A stretch of DNA of 64,000 nucleotides, from positions 1-64,000 of the IMG/VR virus record IMGVR_UViG_3300021467_000093. One strand, 5' to 3'. Position numbers and translations under genes: made by a program. The DNA is from a virus. The notes under the pieces are model-generated. The model ran no database searches. It was not told where the DNA came from and saw only the letters and a list, made by a program, of their open reading frames with translations. This document shows positions 8,794 through 55,948 of this stretch, piece after piece (position 1 is the first letter of the stretch; every line of letters begins with the position of its first letter).

Positions 8794-9843
8794 ATGCCTA
8801 AAAAACTAACAACTAATTATGTTAAGGACGTATTGGCTAAGGAAGGATATGTGTTGTTAAATGATTATTGTGGTTATTACTCCACTTTGTTTGTTAGATG
8901 TCCAGAGGGACACGAGTATATAACTACTTTTGCTAATTGGAGATCTAGTGTAAGGTGTTCTATTTGTACTAAACGCATCAAGTGGACATATGCAGACGTT
9001 AAGGAAGCTTTTGAAAGAGAAGGTTATATGTTGTTAACCACTGTTTATAAAAATAATAAGCAAAAATTGTATTTTATTTGTCCTAACGGCCATTATGGTA
9101 ACATTTTATGGGGTAATTGGCAAAAGGGTCATAGATGTTTTGAGTGTGGTAGATTAAAAGCAGCTAGTAAACAGCGAAAATCTATTGAACATATTGAAAA
9201 TGAATTTAAAAAAGAGGGCTACGTATTATTAACCAAAGAGTATATTAATAGAAATAGCAAATTAAAATTTAAATGTCCTAACGGGCATTTTTATTATACG
9301 ACATGGAGAGATTGGGTAAATGGTAAGCGATGCGCGATATGTGCTGGAAATGCTAAGCTTTCTTATGAATATGTTAAAGAAGCATTTATTCGTGAAGGCT
9401 ATGAGCTATTAAGTAAAGTATATATTAATAGTAGCACGAAACTAAAATATAAGTGTCCCAATGGACATGTAGCTTATATAACATGGGATAAGTGGAAACA
9501 AGGTAGGAGATGTCCTATATGCAATAGAATTAACAAGTTTGGTTCAGGGAATCCGATGTGGAGAGGCGGCATATCTTTTGAGCCTTATTGTGATTTGTGG
9601 CGTGATAGTGAATTTAAAGAGTTTATAAAATGGCGTGATGGCTATATGTGTAATAACGCTGGGTGTTATAATACTAATGATTTAGTTGTACACCATATAG
9701 ATTACAATAAAAAGAACTGTAATTTATCTAATTTAATAACATTATGTAGAAGTTGTAATAGTAGAGTTAATAAACATCGTGGATGGTATATGAAATGGTT
9801 TAGACGTTTGTTGTCTCTTAAATATGGTTTTAAATATGAGTAA
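8794..9843 (+). CDS. HNH homing-type endonuclease with four CPNGH zinc modules
   Basis: 349 residues. Four tandem modules of about 50 residues share the pattern Y-x-VK-x(3)-x-x-EGY-x-LL, then KL-x(3)-CPNGH-x-Y-x(3)-W-x-x-W-x-x-G-x-RC-x-x-C; each has two Cys pairs plus the His of CPNGH, so likely one zinc. A linker with NPMWRGG leads to an HNH core: FIKWRDGYMCNN, HHIDYNKKNC, LITLCRSCNSR. HNH enzymes nick or cut DNA with a beta-beta-alpha-metal site; the modules probably bind DNA. It follows recA by one base with no clear ribosome binding site, as expected of a mobile gene inserted between operon genes. Confidence 0.85.
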   Translation: MPKKLTTNYVKDVLAKEGYVLLNDYCGYYSTLFVRCPEGHEYITTFANWRSSVRCSICTKRIKWTYADVKEAFEREGYMLLTTVYKNNKQKLYFICPNGHYGNILWGNWQKGHRCFECGRLKAASKQRKSIEHIENEFKKEGYVLLTKEYINRNSKLKFKCPNGHFYYTTWRDWVNGKRCAICAGNAKLSYEYVKEAFIREGYELLSKVYINSSTKLKYKCPNGHVAYITWDKWKQGRRCPICNRINKFGSGNPMWRGGISFEPYCDLWRDSEFKEFIKWRDGYMCNNAGCYNTNDLVVHHIDYNKKNCNLSNLITLCRSCNSRVNKHRGWYMKWFRRLLSLKYGFKYE

Positions 9844-46525: not shown

Positions 46526-47023
46526 ATGACTACAAATAATAAAAATGGTATAAGTACAGCAAATTTATTATTTGAAGCAACACAGTATTTTGTTAATAAT
46601 TTAAATGCTGGTCTAAATAAATTAGAAGATCAGTATAAAAAAATTGATAATAAAATAAATACTCCGCCGCGTACTGAGGAATTGTATGAGCGTCAGGGCA
46701 ATATGACTGAGAAACTGGATGCAGTTATATCATTACTATCATCACTTAAGAATACATTTAAAAGTACGTTGTTATATATAAAAATATTTGCTACAGCAAT
46801 TTCAATAGCGATAATTGTTGGCGGAATTATAATTTATTACGGTAACCAAAAAACTAGCATGGCTAAAATAGAAACTAGGATTGAAGAGCGTATGAATAAA
46901 CAAATTGAAAAGCATTTCGATGAATTTAATAAACAGTTTTACGATTTCAGAATTACAATTGAAAGACGTTTAGACCGATTGGAAAAGAGCCGTAATAATG
47001 GAATTACAAATGAACGAAGATAA
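46526..47023 (+). CDS. Single-pass membrane protein with coiled coils
   Basis: 165 residues. A helical N-terminus (NLLFEATQYFVNNLNAGLNKLEDQY), one hydrophobic helix (about 85-107, ILYIKIFATAISIAIIVGGIII region), and a charged coiled coil after it (KIETRIEERMNKQIEKHFDEFNKQ). Resembles phage membrane/holin-neighbour or spanin-like proteins only in layout. Confidence 0.5.
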   Translation: MTTNNKNGISTANLLFEATQYFVNNLNAGLNKLEDQYKKIDNKINTPPRTEELYERQGNMTEKLDAVISLLSSLKNTFKSTLLYIKIFATAISIAIIVGGIIIYYGNQKTSMAKIETRIEERMNKQIEKHFDEFNKQFYDFRITIERRLDRLEKSRNNGITNERR

Positions 47024-47231
47024 CATTACTTACTTGGACTGCAAATGGTATATGGGGGACGGTCAATGTAAAATGCCGTCGATCAATGGGGGATTTTCTG
47101 CGTGTATATCTTTAAATAAATTAGATCCATTTTGTGCGTGGTTAATACCATTTTTAAATACCGAAAGTAATAATAACAATGATGATGTTGAGTTACCGAC
47201 GAGTTTTAAATTAGATAATGGTGCTTATTAG
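46998..47231 (+). CDS. Small Cys-containing protein
   Basis: 77 residues, ATG 46998 (ATG 47010 is an alternative). Cys at DCKWYMGDGQCKM, SACISL and DPFCAWL, then an Asn-rich acidic tail. The TAG stop touches the first CRISPR-like repeat. Not recognised. Confidence 0.45.
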   Translation: MELQMNEDNITYLDCKWYMGDGQCKMPSINGGFSACISLNKLDPFCAWLIPFLNTESNNNNDDVELPTSFKLDNGAY

Positions 47232-47258
47232 GTCGCTTGATAGCGCATGAATTGAAAC
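47231..47258 (+). repeat. CRISPR-repeat-like unit R1 (type I-C-like)
   Basis: A 28-base unit starting GGTCGC and ending ATGAATTGAAAC, with the hairpin CGCT-TGAT-AGCG (47234-47245). The last 12 bases are identical to those of R2 and R3 at 50.1 kb. Type I-C repeats typically begin GTCGC and end G-x-G-R-ATTGAAAC. It stands alone and is followed 25 bases later by a rho-independent terminator, so a short RNA carrying one repeat is plausible. Confidence 0.7.
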
Positions 47259-47283
47259 AAAAAACAAACGCCTATGAACTTAT

Positions 47284-47339
47284 GCACTAATTGACATAAA
47301 TTATAACTGTTTTTAAGTGTCGATTAGTGCTATTTTTTT
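47284..47339 (+). terminator. Rho-independent terminator
   Basis: GCACTAATTGACA (47284-47296) pairs with TGTCGATTAGTGC (47318-47330), 13 pairs with one G-U, then a run of seven T. It ends any transcript that contains R1. Confidence 0.85.
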
Positions 47340-47350
47340 CAAAAAAAATG

Positions 47351-47379
47351 TTTACAATATTGAAAATATATTCCATAAT
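47351..47379 (+). promoter_or_regulatory. Promoter of the PrkA block
   Basis: TTTACA (47351-47356), 17-base spacer, CATAAT (47374-47379), between the terminator and the gene at 47416. Confidence 0.7.
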
Positions 47380-47415
47380 ATATATAGAGAATTACATTAG
47401 TTTGGAGGTGGCAGA

Positions 47416-47733
47416 ATGCCAGAAATTACAAAAAATTATATTCGAATACCAGTTAAACGAAAACGAAAATCTAATGAATTAAGAACTATAACTTTAGGAA
47501 AAGGAATTAAGGCACTATACGATGTTAAACGCAAAATAATAGTTACCTACCTGTTTGATAAAACAAAATATACAATGAAAGAGGCAAAGGAGTGGGTTAA
47601 AAAACATAGTAATAATGCAACATTGGAATTGGTTGCTAAAAATTTGATATTGGCAAATGAGTTACATTTGTCATTAGAGAATATAAAAGAGGAAGTTTTT
47701 AATAGAATAAATGAAAAAGGAGAAGATCTATGA
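47416..47733 (+). CDS. Small basic protein, first gene of the PrkA operon
   Basis: 105 residues with GGAGGTGG upstream, overlapping the PrkA start by 4 bases. A basic N-terminus (IPVKRKRKSNELRTITLGKG) and a helical half (KYTMKEAKEWVKKHSNNATLEL). It looks DNA- or RNA-binding by charge; not recognised. Confidence 0.5.
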   Translation: MPEITKNYIRIPVKRKRKSNELRTITLGKGIKALYDVKRKIIVTYLFDKTKYTMKEAKEWVKKHSNNATLELVAKNLILANELHLSLENIKEEVFNRINEKGEDL

Positions 47734-49676
47734 ACTTTGAAGAAATCATAGCCAAGCAAAAAGAGGAGCAAAAATTTGAAAATTGGGAAGGTACTTTAAT
47801 TGATTATCTAGAACTAGTTAAAAGTAATCCTAAAATTGCTACATTTGCGCCTGGTCGAATCTATAATTTGATTATTAATAAAGGAGTTGAAGAAGTCGAC
47901 GAATCGTTAAAATTGCGAGGTTATGAAGATTTAGTCAAATATAAATTTTTTGACGGAAAAATATTTGGCGCATTAGAACCTATTCATGATATAATGAAAT
48001 TTTTAAAAGCAGCTGCTAGGCGTACTGAGACTGGTAAACGTATTTTAATTTTAGTCGGTCCTGTTAGTAGTGGTAAATCTACAATAGCTGCATTATTGAA
48101 AAGAGGTTTGGAAAATGATCCGATCCCAAAATACGCTATTAAAGGATGCCCAGTACATGAAGAACCACTTCATGCTATACCACTGAGCGATAGAGAATTT
48201 TGGGAAGAGCAGTTAAATGTTAAAATAGAAGGAGTATTGTGTCCAGTATGTCAATATAGATTAGATACAGAGTTCACTAAAGATGGTATTGCTAATTGGG
48301 ATAAATTACCTGTAGAACGTATTAGATTTTCTGAACAAAAGAGAGTTGGTATTGGTACTTTTCAACCATCAGATCCAAAAAGCCAAGATGTAACAGAATT
48401 GATTGGTAGAGTAAATATGGCTAAAGTAGCACGATATGGAGAAACAGACCCGCGTGCATTTTCGTTTGATGGAGAACTTCAGGTTGCCAATGGCGGATTA
48501 ATTGAAATGGTTGAATTATTAAAAACAGATATTAAGTTACAATATGTCTTAATATCATTGGCACAAGAACAAGTTATCAAGTCGCCTGGTTTTCCACAAA
48601 TGTATATAGACACTCTTGTGATTGCTCATACCAATATGACTGAATTTGATATTTTTAAAGCTGATAAGAAAAATGAGGCTCTCCATGATAGAATGTATCC
48701 TGTATTTGTTCCTTGGAATTTGAGAGTTGACGATGAGATCAAGATTTATGAAAAAATGATCAGAGAGTCTGATTTTAGAGATATACATATTGCTCCATAT
48801 ACATTAAAAATAGCAGCACAGTTTGCAGTATTAACAAGATTAGTTGATTCTGCAAAAGTTTCAAATAAAATTGAAAAAATGAAACTGTATAATGGGGAAA
48901 TATCAGAAGGATTTAAAAAGACTGATATTGATATTAAAGAATTGCGCCAAGAAGGTAGAGATAAAGGTGAAGGATTGAAAGGTATTTCACCTCGATTTAT
49001 TATAAATGCATTGAATGTAGCATTAGGAGCGAAAGAAGATAAGAAATGTGTGAATCCTATTGATATAATAAGAGCCTTAAGAGATAATTTTAAACATCAT
49101 ATAGGAATAAATGAAGAAGAAATAGATCATTATTTGAATTTATTAATTGGCGACAAAGATTCAGTGAGTGCTGAATACAAAGAGATAGCTAAAAAAGAAG
49201 TTAATATGGCCTTTTTATATGCTTATGATGATCAAGCTAATGCACTTTTTGAGAACTATATGAAAAATATTTCAGCTTATTGTTTAAAAGAAAAAGTGTA
49301 CGACTCTGTAACTGGGGAGTATTCAGATCCTGATGAAAAATTGATGAGATCATTAGAAGAGTTGATTCCAGTACCTGAAAATTCAAAATCGGAGTTTAGA
49401 AATGGTGTATTTGTATATAAATCGCATGCATTAGAGCAAGGAAAGCAATTTAAATATACTGATTACCCGCCATTACAAGAGGCTATAGAGAAGAAACTGA
49501 TGGCAGATTTAAAACCTATGGTAAGTTTGTCGTTAGCAGATAAATCCGTAACTAATCCTAAAGCTAAAAAACGTAGAGAAAAAGCATTGCAGACATTATT
49601 AGAAAAAGGTTATTGTGAAGAATGTGCAAATGTTTTATTGGCTTTTGTCGGTGAAATATTACGTAAGGAAGAATAA
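47730..49676 (+). CDS. prkA: PrkA/YeaG-family AAA+ serine-kinase-type protein
   Basis: 648 residues, the family's usual size (about 640). N-terminal AAA: ILILVGPVSSGKSTIAALLKRG (Walker A), then the PrkA signatures GCPVHEEPLHAIP and GVLCPVCQYRL, FQPSDPKSQDVTELIGRVN, FSFDGELQVANGGLIEMVELLK and LVIAHTNMTEF. The C-terminal kinase-like part contains LPVPENS-type phrases near LEELIPVPENSKSEFRNGVF. PrkA acts with a DUF444 protein and SpoVR in bacteria under stress or sporulation; its mechanism is unsettled. Here all three are within 8 kb. Confidence 0.92.
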   Translation: MNFEEIIAKQKEEQKFENWEGTLIDYLELVKSNPKIATFAPGRIYNLIINKGVEEVDESLKLRGYEDLVKYKFFDGKIFGALEPIHDIMKFLKAAARRTETGKRILILVGPVSSGKSTIAALLKRGLENDPIPKYAIKGCPVHEEPLHAIPLSDREFWEEQLNVKIEGVLCPVCQYRLDTEFTKDGIANWDKLPVERIRFSEQKRVGIGTFQPSDPKSQDVTELIGRVNMAKVARYGETDPRAFSFDGELQVANGGLIEMVELLKTDIKLQYVLISLAQEQVIKSPGFPQMYIDTLVIAHTNMTEFDIFKADKKNEALHDRMYPVFVPWNLRVDDEIKIYEKMIRESDFRDIHIAPYTLKIAAQFAVLTRLVDSAKVSNKIEKMKLYNGEISEGFKKTDIDIKELRQEGRDKGEGLKGISPRFIINALNVALGAKEDKKCVNPIDIIRALRDNFKHHIGINEEEIDHYLNLLIGDKDSVSAEYKEIAKKEVNMAFLYAYDDQANALFENYMKNISAYCLKEKVYDSVTGEYSDPDEKLMRSLEELIPVPENSKSEFRNGVFVYKSHALEQGKQFKYTDYPPLQEAIEKKLMADLKPMVSLSLADKSVTNPKAKKRREKALQTLLEKGYCEECANVLLAFVGEILRKEE

Positions 49677-49696
49677 TTCTATGAATGGAGGTAAAT

Positions 49697-49867
49697 ATGT
49701 TTGAAGATATTTTAGGACATGAATATAAGGAATGCTCTCAAAAAGATGAGATACTACGATATCCAAAGTCATGTCCATACTGTGGAGCATCAGATATTGG
49801 ATTGGGATCTGTGGATGGGCATACAACTTATTTTTTTTGTGCTAAATGTGGTTATACTTGGGAGTAA
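49697..49867 (+). CDS. Small zinc-ribbon protein A
   Basis: 56 residues from ATG 49697 (GGAGG six bases upstream). CPYCGASDIG and CAKCGYTWE form one zinc ribbon. Its start MFEDIL and C-terminal layout match the following gene (MFDDIL), so the two are tandem duplicates sitting between PrkA and DUF444. Confidence 0.6.
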   Translation: MFEDILGHEYKECSQKDEILRYPKSCPYCGASDIGLGSVDGHTTYFFCAKCGYTWE

Positions 49868-49872
49868 TTCTA

Positions 49873-50064
49873 ATGTTTGATGATATTTTATCTACAACCA
49901 ATGATAAAGACAAGTTAGAGCATTCTGATGTTGAGAATAGTGATTTTGTTTATGCTTACAGTTGTCCAATTTGTGGTTCTGTTAATCTTACTATACACAC
50001 ATTTGGCAACGGTAAAGTAACTTTGTACTGCGTTAACTGTAATTTTCTATGGAATAGTGACTGA
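49873..50064 (+). CDS. Small zinc-ribbon protein B
   Basis: 63 residues from ATG 49873 (GGGAGT upstream). CPICGSVNLT and CVNCNFLWN repeat the ribbon of the previous gene with an acidic insert. A nucleic-acid or protein adaptor role in the PrkA module is a guess. Confidence 0.6.
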   Translation: MFDDILSTTNDKDKLEHSDVENSDFVYAYSCPICGSVNLTIHTFGNGKVTLYCVNCNFLWNSD

Positions 50065-50097
50065 CAAATATTTAATGAGGACTCCCTTGATTTAATA

Positions 50098-50126
50098 GTT
50101 ACACTTGATAGTGCATGAATTGAAAC
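50098..50126 (+). repeat. CRISPR-repeat-like unit R2
   Basis: A 29-base unit starting GTTAC and ending ATGAATTGAAAC, with hairpin CACT-TGAT-AGTG (50102-50113). Relative to R1 both arms of the stem changed together (CGCT/AGCG to CACT/AGTG), i.e. compensatory change. R3 begins 20 bases later. Confidence 0.7.
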
Positions 50127-50146
50127 AGAAGATTGATAAATTTATA

Positions 50147-50176
50147 GGTCGCGCTTAATAACATATGAATTGAAAC
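50147..50176 (+). repeat. CRISPR-repeat-like unit R3
   Basis: A 30-base unit starting GGTCGCGC and ending ATGAATTGAAAC; 21 of 29 aligned positions match R2. The central stem is not preserved. It ends two bases before the GGAGG site of the DUF444 gene. R2-R3 spacing (20 bases) is shorter than normal I-C spacers (about 34). Confidence 0.6.
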
Positions 50177-50187
50177 ATGGAGGCTCT

Positions 50188-52806
50188 ATGACTATAATTT
50201 ATCATCCCGATTGGGATATGTCAGAAAAAGGAAAGAAAGATGTAGAACGTCATCATAAAAAGATAGATGACGCTATTCGTAAAAGTGTAAAAGATGTAAT
50301 AGCAGAAGAATCAATAATTACTAAGAAAAAAGGCAAAAAAGTTAGGATTCCAGTCCGTGGACTGAAAGATTATAAATTTATACATGGAGAAAAGGGCAAG
50401 GGAAAGGGAAAAGGGGATAAAAGTGAAGGAGAAGGAGAAAGTGAGGGAATTGGACAGGGCAAAGGTAAGCCTGGTGATATTATAGGCCGTAGACCAAAAC
50501 AAGGCCCCGGTAAAGGTGGAGAAGGCAAACCTGGAGATAAACCAGGAGAAGATTACATTGAAGCAGAAATTGATATTGATTATTTAATTGAAATAATGTT
50601 TGAAGACTTGGGGTTACCTTGGATACAAGAAAAAACGAAAGCTCAGCAATTAGTTCCTAGTGGTTGGAAATTTGAAACAGTATCTAAGGTTGGTATTTTA
50701 CCACGTTTACATAAAAAACGTACTATTTTAGAAGCTATTAAAAGAAACGAGTTATATGCTCGTGAAATTGTAGAAGAATTGAAATGTGGTTATGAATTAG
50801 CCCTTAAAGCACTAGTTCAGGCTAATGGAGATATAGATGATGCAATTCAATTAATTAAAAATAACGAAGTAAATGAAGATGTTGATCCATATATTATTAT
50901 TGAGGATGAAGATTTACGTTACAAACAAATAGAGCAAGATTTTGAATTACATTCTAATGCTGTAGTTATTGCAGCAATGGATACCAGCGGGTCGATGACC
51001 ACGGATAAAAAATACTTATGTCGTTCATTATTATTTTGGTTAGTAGAATTTTTAAAGAAAGTTTATGATTATGTAGATATAAAATTTATAGTACATACTA
51101 CTGAAGCTAAATTAGTAGACGAAGATACGTTTTTTTATAAAGGTGAATGTCATACTGATAATCACTATATTTTAATGCATGATGGTAGTATTAAAGACAT
51201 AAAAGATATAATTATTGGGGACAAGGTGGTTTCTATCAATAAGTTTGGTGAAAAGGAAATAAAACCAGTTACTAGAGTATATTCTAGAGAGGTCGAAGAT
51301 TTATTAGAAATAGATTTAGTAGGCGCTGGTAAATTAAAATGTACTCCTCAACACAGATATTTTGTTTTTAACATAGATAATGGAAATATATATGAGAAAA
51401 AAGCTGTGAATATTGATATAAACAAAGAATACTTATTAATGCCCAACATTAACTTATTTGAAGATGATGATGAAATTGATGAAATGAATTATGTTATTGG
51501 ATTTATATTTGGTGACGGGTATGTAAAAGATAGAAGCATCAACATTACTGATAAAGATGTACGCAATTTAGAATATTTAAAATCTATATTAGACAGGTTT
51601 AATATTAGTAATAATATAATTTGTGGTGACAGGAATAGATTATGGATCTATAGTAAAAAATTTTGTGATTATATACGTACTAATTATAGCGGTTGTTGTG
51701 AATTGTCACCAAAGAGATATATAAATAATAATATTAGTAAATTAGGCAATAAAAATTTAGCTTTATTTTTAAGTGGTTTGTTTGATGCTGAAGGACATGT
51801 AGGTGAAAAATCAATTCAACTGACAATGTCTAGTAAAAAAATTATTAAGCAAATATATAATTTATTATTAAGGTTTGGTATAGTATCGTCATATACATAT
51901 CAAAAACCGAGCTATAAATCATTTGGATGTGTCGATGGTAAAATTTATCATAAATTACAGATACAGGGTGATAATTTAATAAAATTTAATAAGTTAATTG
52001 GATTTAGGTCTAAGCAAAAAAATGAAGCATTAGAGTTGTTGTGTAATAATAGATCTAAGACATCAACTAAAACTAGGTCACCGGTAGTATTATTTGATAA
52101 ACATATAAGAGACTATATAAATTATACAACAACTAAATTAGATGGCTATAATTTTTTTAAATATGTACCACATAGATATTTTAATACTAAGATCTTACCA
52201 AGAAAATATGTTGAAAGATTATTAAATGATTTTAAATTTATTGATGATGATAATTTTGTTAGTGCTTATAGCAATTCATTTAATCTAGTAAAAATAAATT
52301 CTATAGAACCTATAAAAGATAAAACTAAGGTGTATGACTTAACAATTAAAGATAATAGTTCGTATATAATTGATGGGGTATATAGCCATAATTCTGGAGG
52401 AACGTTTTGTTGGACAGCAATAGACAAGGCTATATATTTAATTGAAACTGAATATCCAGTTGAAGAGTGGAATGTTTATTGTGTATATGTAAGCGATGGT
52501 GATGACTTTGATCCACAGAAAACTGTACGTTATATAGATGAACTAATGAAAAAAAGAATAAATATGTTCGCATATACAGAGGTTAAACCGCAATATTCTT
52601 CAATAAATCATACTATTAATTTAATGTGGGGGTCTCAGAATACATTAATTAATACTATTAAGAAAAAATGGAAGTTTAATTGTAGAGTTGAAGACGGGGC
52701 AGAGTTTTGTAGAAATGATAATTTGCATATGATTTTATCTACTATTAGAAATAAAAACCATGTATATCCAACTTTAAAACATATTTTGTTTGAGAAAGTA
52801 AAGTAA
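50188..52806 (+). CDS. yhbH: DUF444 (YhbH/YeaH) von Willebrand-type protein split by an intein
   Basis: 872 residues as encoded, about 457 after splicing. ATG 50188 is chosen for GGAGG at 50179-50183. The N-terminus (HPDWDMSEKGKKDVERHHKKIDDAIRK) is that of DUF444, followed by a Gly/Lys-rich linker, a helical part with a UBA-like segment (YELALKALVQANGDIDDAIQLI), then a VWA fold: AAMDTSGSMTTDKKYLCRSLLFWLVEFL and FFYKGE joined to SGGTFCWTAI. DUF444 proteins partner PrkA and SpoVR in bacteria. The intein sits at the conserved GE-SGGT junction. Confidence 0.9.
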   Translation: MTIIYHPDWDMSEKGKKDVERHHKKIDDAIRKSVKDVIAEESIITKKKGKKVRIPVRGLKDYKFIHGEKGKGKGKGDKSEGEGESEGIGQGKGKPGDIIGRRPKQGPGKGGEGKPGDKPGEDYIEAEIDIDYLIEIMFEDLGLPWIQEKTKAQQLVPSGWKFETVSKVGILPRLHKKRTILEAIKRNELYAREIVEELKCGYELALKALVQANGDIDDAIQLIKNNEVNEDVDPYIIIEDEDLRYKQIEQDFELHSNAVVIAAMDTSGSMTTDKKYLCRSLLFWLVEFLKKVYDYVDIKFIVHTTEAKLVDEDTFFYKGECHTDNHYILMHDGSIKDIKDIIIGDKVVSINKFGEKEIKPVTRVYSREVEDLLEIDLVGAGKLKCTPQHRYFVFNIDNGNIYEKKAVNIDINKEYLLMPNINLFEDDDEIDEMNYVIGFIFGDGYVKDRSINITDKDVRNLEYLKSILDRFNISNNIICGDRNRLWIYSKKFCDYIRTNYSGCCELSPKRYINNNISKLGNKNLALFLSGLFDAEGHVGEKSIQLTMSSKKIIKQIYNLLLRFGIVSSYTYQKPSYKSFGCVDGKIYHKLQIQGDNLIKFNKLIGFRSKQKNEALELLCNNRSKTSTKTRSPVVLFDKHIRDYINYTTTKLDGYNFFKYVPHRYFNTKILPRKYVERLLNDFKFIDDDNFVSAYSNSFNLVKINSIEPIKDKTKVYDLTIKDNSSYIIDGVYSHNSGGTFCWTAIDKAIYLIETEYPVEEWNVYCVYVSDGDDFDPQKTVRYIDELMKKRINMFAYTEVKPQYSSINHTINLMWGSQNTLINTIKKKWKFNCRVEDGAEFCRNDNLHMILSTIRNKNHVYPTLKHILFEKVK
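51148..52392 (+). other. LAGLIDADG intein (415 aa) in the DUF444 protein
   Basis: Residues 321-735: Cys1 (CHTDNHYILMHDG), block B LKCTPQHRYFV, two LAGLIDADG-type helices (VIGFIFGDGYV and LFLSGLFDAEGHVG), block F KVYDLTIKDNSSYIIDGVYSHN with terminal Asn, then Ser+1. Splicing restores GE-SGGT next to the VWA metal site region. Both acidic residues of the nuclease helices (GDG and DAEG) appear intact, so the intein is probably mobile. Confidence 0.9.
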
Positions 52807-54041
52807 TGGCACAAAAATTTACATATAATTATGTAAAAACTTATATAGAAGCGAATGGCTATAAATTACTAAGTACCGCATATATTAATACCCACACTAA
52901 ATTATTAATACAGTGTGAAAAGGAGCATATTTATAAACAATGTTTTAACGTCTTTAAAAAAGGACATAGATGTCCAATATGTGCTAGAAATTCTAGATAT
53001 AATTATAATGAGGTAAAGAAGTATTTTAAAAAATATAACCACATTATTATATCTGGCAAATACACTAATATACATAGCAAGTTATTAGTCAAGTGCACAT
53101 GTGGGAATATTTATGTAACTACGTTTAATAAATTTAAAAATAGAAAAAACAAATGCCCTGCATGTAATGATTATTTTGTAACTACTAAAAAAGTTAGACA
53201 ACATCTTAAACAATATGGACATATCTTACTTTCTGTCTATAAAGGTGCTAAACATAAACTAAAAATTAGATGTACTAACGGCCATATTTATTATAAAACA
53301 TGGAACAGTATAAAAGCTGGGCAATTATGCCCTATTTGCAATAGGCAAAAGAAATTATCTATAAATTATATAAAAAATCAAATGTTAAGAGAGGGTTATT
53401 GTTTAATAACTAGAGATTATATTAATAATAGAAGTATGTTGGAAGTTAAATGTCCTAATGGACATATTTATACTACATGTTGGAATTATTGGCAACAAGG
53501 AAATCGATGTCCTATATGTGCAGGAAATACAAAATATTCTCAAGAAGAATTAATCGCATATTTTAAACATTATGGTTATACATTGCTAAGTCCTTATAAA
53601 AATAATAAAACTAAATTAACGTTGTTATGTCCTAATAACCATAAATTTAAGATGACATTAAACAATTTTATGTGCGGACAACGTTGTCCGATTTGTATGA
53701 GATGGAGGTCTAAGTATGAGTTAGAATTAGAAAGTATTTTAAAGTCGTGGGGAATTGATTTTAGATCTAACGATAAAAGTATATTAAAAAATCCATACAC
53801 TGGTAGGCCGTTAGAGTTAGATTTTTACATACCGACGCTTAAAAAAGCTATTGAGTTTAACGGTAAATATTGGCATAATTTAGCCAAAATACAAAAAAGA
53901 GATATTATAAAAATGGAAGTCTGTGTTAGTAATAATGTAGAACTATTTGTTATTAATGAGGATGAGTGGCTCAGCAACAAAGTTAAAATTATTAAACAAT
54001 TAAAACAATTTCTAAATGTAAACTCTTCAATAAACAATTAA
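52806..54041 (+). CDS. Vsr-like homing endonuclease with five zinc modules
   Basis: 411 residues beginning in the stop of the DUF444 gene (TAATG), no ribosome binding site. Five modules with CPNGH or relatives (CEKEH, CTCGN, CTNGH, CPNGH, CPNNH) lead to a Vsr/EDxHD core: SKYELELESILKSWGIDFRSNDKS, RPLELDFYIPTLKKAIEFNGKYWHN, VELFVINEDEWL. ELDFYIP to EFNGKYWHN is the catalytic set. Modules 1-3 are more divergent than those at 8.8 kb. Confidence 0.82.
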   Translation: MAQKFTYNYVKTYIEANGYKLLSTAYINTHTKLLIQCEKEHIYKQCFNVFKKGHRCPICARNSRYNYNEVKKYFKKYNHIIISGKYTNIHSKLLVKCTCGNIYVTTFNKFKNRKNKCPACNDYFVTTKKVRQHLKQYGHILLSVYKGAKHKLKIRCTNGHIYYKTWNSIKAGQLCPICNRQKKLSINYIKNQMLREGYCLITRDYINNRSMLEVKCPNGHIYTTCWNYWQQGNRCPICAGNTKYSQEELIAYFKHYGYTLLSPYKNNKTKLTLLCPNNHKFKMTLNNFMCGQRCPICMRWRSKYELELESILKSWGIDFRSNDKSILKNPYTGRPLELDFYIPTLKKAIEFNGKYWHNLAKIQKRDIIKMEVCVSNNVELFVINEDEWLSNKVKIIKQLKQFLNVNSSINN

Positions 54042-54064
54042 TTTATTCGTTATAGGAGTAATAG

Positions 54065-55579
54065 ATGGAGCAAAATGAGTTACGTAGACTAATAAAAATA
54101 GAAAATCGTATAAATCAAATAGTAACTGAAGAATTAAAGCTTAATTGTTACCCAATTGAATTTGATGTGATCCCTGCTCAAAAAATGTTGGAAGTGATGG
54201 CCTATAACATCCCAACAAATATAAGTAATTGGAAATACGGGAGAGAATATGAAAGAGAAAAGACTATTTATGAACATAGTGGGAGATCCCTCCCATATGA
54301 GGTTGTGATTAACTCAAATCCAGCAAAAGCATATCTAATGAAGGAAAATAGATTTGCAGTGCAAGCCCTAGTTATTGCTCATGTTTATGGTCATGTTGCT
54401 TTTTTTACTAATAATAAGTATTTTCAAAATTCTAGACAAGATATTATAGGTATTATGTATGAAGCGTCTAAGCGTTTCAATGAGTATGAACGTCGGTATG
54501 GAATAGATGAGGTAGAAAAAACTATAGATGCTGGACATGCCTTACAAAGGCATTCTAGTCCATTTGAATTAGGAGAAACTGAAGACGAAAAAAGAAGAAG
54601 GATCTTTGAACAGAGGAAAAAGCAGTTATATACACATGGTGGAGAATTTTCCGATCTTACTAATTTTGAAGTTGATAAAATAAATGAAGATATTGAATTA
54701 TACAATCAAAAATTGTGGCGTAAATTAAAATTAAAAAGCCCGGTCGAGCCTACTGAAGATATATTGAGATATTTAATAGATAATTCAAGAGTTCTAGAAG
54801 ATTGGCAGAAAGATATTTTAGAAGTATTGCGTATGGAAGGTCAGTATTACTGGCCAATTATTAAGACTAAAATAATGAATGAGGGGTTTGCTGTTTTTAT
54901 CCATGAAAAAGTTATTAATCAATTATATAATGAGGGTTTAATAACAGATTCTGAACATGCTGAGTTCAATTATGCAAATTCACTAGTAAAAGCTGAAAAT
55001 CCATTTAGCATTAATCCATATTTAATAGGTTCTAAAATTTGGGAAGACATAGAGGATAGGTGGAATAAAGGACGTTATGGCAGAGAATGGGAAAATTGTG
55101 TAGATTCAAGAAAAAAAGCGGTTTGGGATACTAAAGAAATGAATGGGTGGCAGAAATGTAAAGAAGTTATGACCACTTATATCGATTGGTTTTTTATTCA
55201 AGAATTTTTAACCGCAGAATTAATTCAAAATCTAAACTTGTATTTATTTAGTGCTAAAGAAACAGCACAGTCGATTGATTATGTAATTACTAAACGAGAC
55301 GCAGAAGAAATTAAACAAAAAATTGTACAGTTTTTATCTATCAATAGAATTCCTACAATACTAGTTGAAGATGGTAATTTTAATAATAAAGGAGATTTAA
55401 AATTAAAACATAAATACGATGGATTACCATTAGATGTAACTAATGCTGAAGAAACTTTAAAGCATATTGAATATTTATGGGGTTCTAGAGTCGTATTATA
55501 TACGTATGATGATGAGGACCTACTTGTGTTAGTTTCAAGTGCTAATAAAGACGAAGAAGACGAGTCAGATGATGAATAA
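54065..55579 (+). CDS. spoVR: SpoVR-family protein
   Basis: 504 residues (family about 500) with AGGAGT upstream. CYPIEFDVIPAQKMLEVMAYNIPTNISNWKYGREYEREKTIYEH and LPYEVVINSNPAKAYLMKENRFAVQALVIAHVYGHVAFF are signature blocks, with NEGFAVFIHEKV, PYLIGSKIWEDIEDRW and SRVVLYTYDDEDLLVL further on. An acidic tail ends it. It is the third member of the PrkA-DUF444-SpoVR triad. SpoVR is needed for spore cortex in Bacillus; its chemistry is unknown. The tmRNA starts two bases after the stop. Confidence 0.93.
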   Translation: MEQNELRRLIKIENRINQIVTEELKLNCYPIEFDVIPAQKMLEVMAYNIPTNISNWKYGREYEREKTIYEHSGRSLPYEVVINSNPAKAYLMKENRFAVQALVIAHVYGHVAFFTNNKYFQNSRQDIIGIMYEASKRFNEYERRYGIDEVEKTIDAGHALQRHSSPFELGETEDEKRRRIFEQRKKQLYTHGGEFSDLTNFEVDKINEDIELYNQKLWRKLKLKSPVEPTEDILRYLIDNSRVLEDWQKDILEVLRMEGQYYWPIIKTKIMNEGFAVFIHEKVINQLYNEGLITDSEHAEFNYANSLVKAENPFSINPYLIGSKIWEDIEDRWNKGRYGREWENCVDSRKKAVWDTKEMNGWQKCKEVMTTYIDWFFIQEFLTAELIQNLNLYLFSAKETAQSIDYVITKRDAEEIKQKIVQFLSINRIPTILVEDGNFNNKGDLKLKHKYDGLPLDVTNAEETLKHIEYLWGSRVVLYTYDDEDLLVLVSSANKDEEDESDDE

Positions 55580-55581
55580 AT

Positions 55582-55948
55582 GGGGGCGAGTTAGATTCGA
55601 CGTGGTAGCCGAATCTTAGCTGCGATGCGTAGTGGCAACCTACGTTAAAAAGTTGTATAAAATAATAGATGGAAACTCCATCATAGACTACGCCAACCAT
55701 ATGCTGGAAGGCGTTCAACTTTACGCAACAGTTTAATGTTGTGTTCGGCTTTCCGTAGTTAGCTAGGAACAGAAAACTACGGCTGTAATAAACTTCCCTT
55801 ATGGTTTATTACAGTACTAAGTAAGGGCTTTTATAACCATTTTTGCTTATTTTGGGTTATAAAAGTAAATTAAAATAAGCAAATCATCGTACATCAGCGA
55901 AGAGGAGGTTATCGCGGACCTGGGAGGCAGAGCCCAGCGCCTCCACCA
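55582..55948 (+). ncRNA. ssrA: tmRNA with four pseudoknots and unusual T-loop
   Basis: GGGGGCG (55582-55588) pairs with CGCCTCC before ACCA (end 55948), including the G3-U70 pair that marks alanine tRNAs. GATTCGAC is the conserved 5' arm. H2: CTT-A-GCTG-CGATG with CATCG-TACAT-CAGC-GAAG. PK1 is at 55628-55655; PK2 pairs CCGTAGTT/AACTACGG and TGTTC/GAACA; PK3 pairs CTGTAATAAAC/GTTTATTACAG and CCCTTA/TAAGGG; PK4 pairs CTTTTATAACC/GGTTATAAAAG and TTGCTTATTTT/AAAATAAGCAA. The likely tag starts GNSIIDYAN (GGA at 55671) and ends VQLYATV before TAA (55734-55736). The T-stem is CTGGG/CCCAG but the loop reads AGGCAGAG, not TTCRANY. A T-run follows. Confidence 0.95.

What the first reader, a model, noticed from the sequence alone, without database searches (positions are those of the whole stretch)
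47231..50176. Three type I-C-like CRISPR repeat units outside any array: candidate RNA anti-CRISPRs
R1 (47231-47258), R2 (50098-50126) and R3 (50147-50176) share an identical 12-base end ATGAATTGAAAC, the 5' handle type of I-C crRNAs, and R1 and R3 begin GGTCGC like I-C repeats. R1 and R2 form CGCT-TGAT-AGCG and CACT-TGAT-AGTG hairpins: two compensatory pair changes around the same loop, evidence of selection on RNA structure. No cas genes are visible. Solitary phage-borne repeats are known to act as RNA anti-CRISPRs (Racr) by loading Cas proteins into dead complexes. R1 is followed by a terminator, giving a defined short RNA.
Basis: partly seen in the sequence, partly recalled or inferred. 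Interest (0 to 1): 0.9.

Follow-up and report, generated by a model that had tools for sequence, protein, structure and literature searches.

The report
Phage-borne type I-C CRISPR repeat decoys
A large phage that carries none of the CRISPR genes searched for holds scattered copies of a bacterial CRISPR repeat, plus a two-spacer mini-array just past the window; they probably misdirect the host's own CRISPR proteins, but this has not been tested.

Summary
The three units exist as described, with small corrections. They are not isolated. The same 68.4-kb virus record carries a real mini-CRISPR array (3 repeats, 34- and 36-nt spacers) 4 kb beyond the window. Its middle repeat differs by one base from a Kiritimatiellae type I-C array repeat. 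The 11-mer TGAATTGAAAC, exactly the length of the I-C 5' handle, occurs 5 times where about 0.05 is expected. All units lie outside genes, on the coding strand, although only about 4% of the record is outside plus-strand ORFs.

A close relative (PrkA 90% identical) has six units at different sites: a 3-spacer mini-array, one unit directly before a ribosome-binding site, and one inside its tmRNA gene. Its counterparts of R1-R3 are empty, so the units turn over fast. No cas5, cas7 or cas1 was found in either record. More distant relatives have none.

R1-R3 keep the handle perfectly while their hairpins have shrunk (R1, R2) or vanished (R3). The array adds a second, known possibility: targeting rival viruses. 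No spacer target was found. One compensatory pair change exists, not two.

The parts
46998..47231 (+). 77-aa ORF of unknown function whose TAG stop abuts R1; possible partner (acr-like position), no family match
47232..47258 (+). R1: short type I-C repeat unit GTCGCTTGATAGCGCATGAATTGAAAC, 4-pair hairpin, intact 11-nt handle TGAATTGAAAC
   Evidence: I-C model 19.0 bits, E 0.0032; fold
47284..47340 (+). terminator-like AU-rich 14-pair stem with long loop and U-run after R1
   Evidence: fold z -2.85; not found by the strict scan
50098..50126 (+). R2: GTTACACTTGATAGTGCATGAATTGAAAC, 4-pair hairpin, intact handle
   Evidence: 13.3 bits, E 0.23 on its own; near-identical to A1 from CTT onward; 50 bp from R3
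50127..50147 (+). 21-nt gap between R2 and R3, too short for a normal I-C spacer (33-36 nt)
50148..50176 (+). R3: GTCGCGCTTAATAACATATGAATTGAAAC, 3' stem arm lost, intact handle, ends two bases before the GGAGG of the DUF444 gene
   Evidence: 17.9 bits, E 0.0073; no stem; sequence
50188..52806 (+). gene downstream of R2-R3: DUF444 (YeaH-like) protein with an intein; its leader holds R2 and R3
   Evidence: Pfam PF04285, PF14890

Best explanation
The phage lineage has taken up repeats of its host's type I-C CRISPR array and keeps them, in sense orientation, in gaps between genes: R1 right after a stop codon and before a terminator-like hairpin, R2 and R3 in the leader of the DUF444 gene, and a two-spacer mini-array after thyX. 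Transcribed as part of phage operons, the units would be bound, and where a stem remains cut, by host Cas5d, giving RNAs that begin with the 11-nt I-C 5' handle UGAAUUGAAAC followed by phage sequence that targets nothing useful to the host. These occupy Cas5d, Cas8c and Cas7 and so act as RNA anti-CRISPR decoys (Racr-like). The mini-array could additionally program host Cascade. Shown: the repeat derivation, placement, orientation, handle conservation, absence of cas5, cas7 and cas1, and rapid gain and loss between close relatives. Inferred: transcription, Cas5d binding and cleavage, decoy action, and the identity of the host.
For: I-C model hits, against a background of only two weak hits (16.7 and 11.1 bits) in 28 related virus records. 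Middle array repeat 1 mismatch from a Kiritimatiellae I-C repeat; genomes with such repeats carry cas5, cas7 and cas1 near the array, or cas1 only in the fragmentary G003 contig. The 11-mer equals the 11-nt 5' handle reported for I-C crRNAs (PMC5965380; PMC3890593). In R1, R2, R3 and A1, 11 of 18 upstream columns vary and 0 of 11 handle columns do (Fisher P 0.001). All units are intergenic and sense, with only 4.1% (G000) and 6.9% (G001) of sequence outside + ORFs. The relative G001 has six units at other sites and none at the R1-R3 sites. R1 abuts the stop of a 77-aa ORF, resembling the tested acrIC5-racrIC1 order. Solitary I-C repeats in other viral contigs are also enriched before terminators (16/112 against 4.3%) and just before SD plus start (13/112 against 4.8%).
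Against: Stems of R1 and R2 are short and weak, and R3 has none, yet Cas5d is reported to recognise both the hairpin and the 3' single strand. R2 on its own is within background (E 0.23). No promoter stands out before R1. The 77-aa ORF matches no family. The host is only inferred from repeat similarity: none of about 1,200 host spacers matches the phage. A weakened repeat is also what neutral decay of a former array would leave.
Confidence: 0.55

Rival explanations
1. Virus-borne mini-CRISPR system: the array at 68041-68206 makes crRNAs that, loaded on host I-C Cascade, attack rival viruses in coinfected cells; R1-R3 are side products or remnants of such arrays.
For: Two spacers of canonical I-C length (34 and 36 nt) between repeats, no cas5, cas7 or cas1, and a different array of three spacers in the close relative. 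The Sulfolobales precedent combines mini-arrays with stand-alone repeats (PMC6858448).
Against: No spacer target in related viruses, phage or plasmid collections, or IMG/VR by partial exact patterns. R1 has no spacer and R2-R3 are only 50 bp apart. A1 and A3 are degenerate. The arrays stand at different sites in the two phages.
Confidence: 0.15
2. Neutral remnants: repeats arrive by recombination with the host array or stray Cas1-Cas2 integration and decay without function.
For: Fast turnover between two related phages, degenerate stems, a broken tail in A3. Purifying selection against hits in genes would by itself leave only intergenic copies.
Against: The handle is unchanged in R1, R2, R3 and A1 while upstream columns diverge (P 0.001). 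All copies are in sense orientation. Similar placement recurs in unrelated viral contigs.
Confidence: 0.2
3. mRNA control: units in leaders (R2-R3; units before SD in the relative) are Cas5d sites that change translation or stability of the downstream phage gene when the host has a type I-C system.
For: R3 ends 2 bases before GGAGG; a unit of the relative ends 3 bases before GGAGG; the last array repeat there lies just upstream of a gene. 13 of 112 solitary I-C units in other viral contigs lie within 25 nt of an SD plus start against 4.8% by chance.
Against: The downstream genes differ and are not known counter-defence genes; the leader position is not conserved between the two phages. Short intergenic gaps force closeness to start codons. 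R3 has lost its stem.
Confidence: 0.1

Closest known systems
RNA anti-CRISPRs (Racr), solitary repeat units; RacrIC1 of Bifidobacterium pseudocatenulatum prophage (PMC10651486)
   Same: CRISPR repeat mimics of type I-C in a virus without cas genes found, intergenic, R1 directly downstream of a small ORF as RacrIC1 is 11 nt downstream of acrIC5
   Different: Several units per genome, a close pair and a mini-array in the same genome; stems shortened or lost; none of the units tested; no known acr gene recognised
Virus-borne mini-CRISPR arrays of Sulfolobales viruses SPV1 and SPV2 (PMC6858448)
   Same: One to three spacers, repeats like the host's, no cas genes found, stand-alone repeats in the same genomes, spacer turnover between close relatives
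   Different: Bacterial type I-C repeats; no spacer target found; no leader recognised; terminal repeats degenerate; array sites differ between relatives
Type I-C CRISPR arrays of Kiritimatiellota and related bacteria
   Same: Middle array repeat one base from GTCGCGCCCCATGCGGGCGCGTGAATTGAAAC; same 11-nt handle
   Different: R1, R2, R3 and A1 are shorter (27-29 nt) and AT-rich, a form not found in any host array here

Membership tests
RNA anti-CRISPR (Racr) / solitary repeat unit | similarity to a known CRISPR repeat subtype | tested here: met
   I-C covariance model: R1 E 0.0032, R3 E 0.0073; R2 weak, E 0.23
RNA anti-CRISPR (Racr) / solitary repeat unit | intergenic location in a mobile element | tested here: met
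RNA anti-CRISPR (Racr) / solitary repeat unit | solitary: no other full or partial repeat within about 100 bp (SRUFinder rule) | tested here: inconclusive
   met by R1; not met by the R2-R3 pair (50 bp apart) or the array
RNA anti-CRISPR (Racr) / solitary repeat unit | host carries a CRISPR-Cas system of the same subtype | tested here: inconclusive
   host unknown; genomes with the nearest repeats carry cas5, cas7 and cas1, or cas1 only in the fragmentary nearest match; no host spacer hits the phage
RNA anti-CRISPR (Racr) / solitary repeat unit | transcribed, binds Cas proteins and inhibits interference | not testable with these tools
   needs experiments
Virus-borne mini-CRISPR array | one or two (few) spacers between host-like repeats, without cas genes | tested here: met
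   array at 68041-68206 of the record: 34- and 36-nt spacers; cas5, cas7 and cas1 not found. Record is a fragment
Virus-borne mini-CRISPR array | spacers match related viruses | tested here: not met
   no match in 1.7 Mb of related viral sequence and other collections; searches in IMG/VR were partial
Type I-C CRISPR-Cas locus | cas genes next to the array | tested here: not met
   no Cas5, Cas7 or Cas1 match in the record

The most novel reading that the evidence does not exclude
The units in mRNA leaders (R2-R3 before the DUF444 gene; in the relative, a unit directly before an SD, the last array repeat just upstream of another gene, and one inside tmRNA) are host-Cas-operated switches: the phage uses host Cas5d as an RNA processing factor or sensor that cuts or coats its own mRNAs and tmRNA only in CRISPR-bearing hosts.
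Probability: 0.1. Interest if true: 0.9.

Novelty: new variant of a known kind. Interest (0 to 1): 0.62.

Why it matters
Racr screens ask for a solitary, near-intact repeat (SRUFinder drops clustered hits and applies a bit-score cut-off of 41.1). This phage clade shows solitary units, a close pair and a mini-array in one genome, with several units eroded to little more than the 5' handle. If they work, many RNA anti-CRISPRs have been missed, and the 5' handle rather than the hairpin would be the part that matters against type I-C. The sense-strand placement next to ribosome-binding sites, seen also in other viral contigs, raises a testable question about host Cas5d acting on phage mRNAs.

Tried and rejected
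Chance match: rejected. General leader or promoter motif of the phage: rejected; the record's over-represented promoter-like motif is TTTGTGTTATAATA, a different sequence at other places, one copy just after the mini-array. Phage-encoded CRISPR-Cas: cas5, cas7 and cas1 not found in the record or its relative, but both are fragments, so not excluded for the whole genome. Spacer targets: none in 1.7 Mb of related viruses, INPHARED phages, plasmids (one spacer) or IMG/VR by exact 20-22-mers (two spacers tested). Host spacers against the phage: 1,089 plus 122 spacers, no credible hit. Other viruses with the same short AT-rich subfamily: none by exact pattern. I-C repeats in more distant relatives (PrkA 63-71% identical): none credible. 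77-aa ORF as a known Acr: no family or structure match.

Full report
Observation. R1, R2 and R3 are in the sequence and share ATGAATTGAAAC exactly. The repeat proper is R1 47232-47258 GTCGCTTGATAGCGCATGAATTGAAAC, R2 50098-50126 GTTACACTTGATAGTGCATGAATTGAAAC, R3 50148-50176 GTCGCGCTTAATAACATATGAATTGAAAC. In the whole record TGAATTGAAAC occurs 5 times where 0.05 is expected. The permissive count (20 hits at up to 2 mismatches against 17.6 expected) is uninformative by design.

What lies beyond the window. The window is bases 1-64000 of a 68,408-bp virus record. At 68041-68206 stands a mini-CRISPR array directly after the stop of a gene that I read as an intein-containing thyX (by eye, not searched): A1 ATCGTACTTAATAGTGCGTGAATTGAAAC, a 34-nt spacer, A2 GCCGCGCCCCATGCGGGCGCGTGAATTGAAAC, a 36-nt spacer, A3 GTCGCGCCCCGTACAGGGGCGCGTGAAT-aaTGAAA (a broken terminal repeat). 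A2 is one base from GTCGCGCCCCATGCGGGCGCGTGAATTGAAAC, an array repeat of a Kiritimatiellae MAG (7 copies, cas1 on the same contig) and of another genome of the same phylum. R1, R2, R3 and A1 form a short AT-rich subfamily; A1 and R2 are nearly identical from CTT onward. I found no host array and no other viral contig with this short form.

Model test. A covariance model of 36 I-C-type repeats from bacterial contigs, nearly all from arrays, finds A2 39.4, A3 19.8, R1 19.0, R3 17.9, A1 14.3 and R2 13.3 bits. Across 28 related virus records it gives only two weak hits, 16.7 and 11.1 bits. R2 therefore rests on its 50-bp distance to R3 and its likeness to A1, not on its own score. The repeats in the model were fetched with a pattern fixing GTCGC and GCGTGAATTGAAAC, so those columns are invariant by construction.

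Relative. IMGVR_UViG_3300033141_005122 (34,758 bp; PrkA 90% identical, DNA mostly 65-90% identical and largely collinear) carries a 4-repeat, 3-spacer mini-array (spacers 34, 30, 30 nt) just upstream of a 343-aa gene, a unit ending 3 bases before the GGAGG of another gene (ACCGCGCTCTATGTGGGTGTGTGTATTGAAACAAAGGAGGTGTCTATG), and a unit inside its tmRNA gene. The sites of R1, R2-R3 and the thyX array are empty there, and its array and leader sites are empty in the window phage, whose tmRNA has ordinary sequence at the third. So six independent sites differ between two related phages: gain and loss is fast. More distant relatives show none.

Placement. Every unit is on the strand of the genes and outside gene-sized ORFs, though only 4.1% and 6.9% of the two records lie outside plus-strand ORFs of 60 aa or more (one unit of the relative overlaps only an upstream extension of an ORF). 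R1 begins on the base after a TAG stop; A1 overlaps the last base of the stop of the gene before it; R3 ends two bases before the GGAGG of the DUF444 gene (ATG at 50188). In 112 non-coding solitary I-C repeats from other IMG/VR contigs, 13 lie within 25 nt of an SD plus start (4.8% expected from random intergenic positions in the same contigs, P 0.003) and 16 precede a terminator (4.3% expected, P 3e-5). The two placements of R1 and R3 are thus recurrent. The controls are simple and the contig sample is capped, so treat these as indications.

Structure. R1 and R2 make 4-pair stems with one compensatory change between them; A1 makes 6 pairs; A2 and A3 make 7-8 GC-rich pairs; R3 has no stem. Across R1, R2, R3 and A1 the 11-nt handle never varies while 11 of 18 upstream columns do (P 0.001; alignment of the four by hand). 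I-C crRNAs carry an 11-nt 5' handle after Cas5d cleavage. The part kept is thus what would sit at the 5' end of a crRNA.

Function. Two precedents apply. Solitary repeats as RNA anti-CRISPRs, including a tested I-C case downstream of acrIC5 (PMC10651486); in that paper a non-targeting crRNA also reduced interference by competition, so even the array could act as a decoy. And cas-less virus-borne mini-arrays aimed at related viruses, which may co-occur with stand-alone repeats (PMC6858448). The window phage resembles both. I could not find a target for any spacer, which leaves the array's role open. I favour decoy action for R1-R3 at 0.55, neutral remnants at 0.2, targeting of rivals as the main role at 0.15 and mRNA control at 0.1.

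Limits. Both records are linear fragments, so cas genes elsewhere in the genomes are not excluded. The host is inferred from repeat identity only. No transcription data exist here. Only cas5, cas7 and cas1 were searched for.

Noticed in passing
window 55582-55948; L203 8485-8736 (minus strand): The phage encodes a tmRNA (Rfam RF00023, 105 bits). In the relative the tmRNA is shorter (252 against 367 nt) and a type I-C repeat unit sits in the middle of it, where the tag reading frame would run through the repeat. Ten more distant relatives show no tmRNA at this locus.
   Followed up: partly
window 47730-55579: A prkA - zinc-ribbon ORFs - DUF444 (YeaH-like) - 504-aa ORF cluster, probably spoVR-like (the last by eye), is conserved in dozens of viral contigs; the DUF444 gene carries an intein with a LAGLIDADG domain here but not in the relative.
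   Followed up: partly
window 5999, 30559, 56587, 63008 and record position 68229: Over-represented motif TTTGTGTTATAATA, exact at five places, looks like a phage promoter -10 region; the last copy follows the mini-array. A second motif, ATTTGTCCTAACGG, is exact at 9076 and 34160.
   Followed up: no
L317 and L326 (IMGVR_UViG_3300031673_000079), L350 (IMGVR_UViG_3300032069_000010), L363 and L364 (IMGVR_UViG_3300020171_000101): Other viral contigs also carry two to four dispersed copies of one I-C repeat on one strand, several just before ribosome-binding sites; multi-copy repeats in phages may be a wider pattern.
   Followed up: partly
L203 10-95 (minus strand): The relative has a tRNA-Ser after its thyX-like gene, where the window phage has the mini-array.
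   Followed up: no
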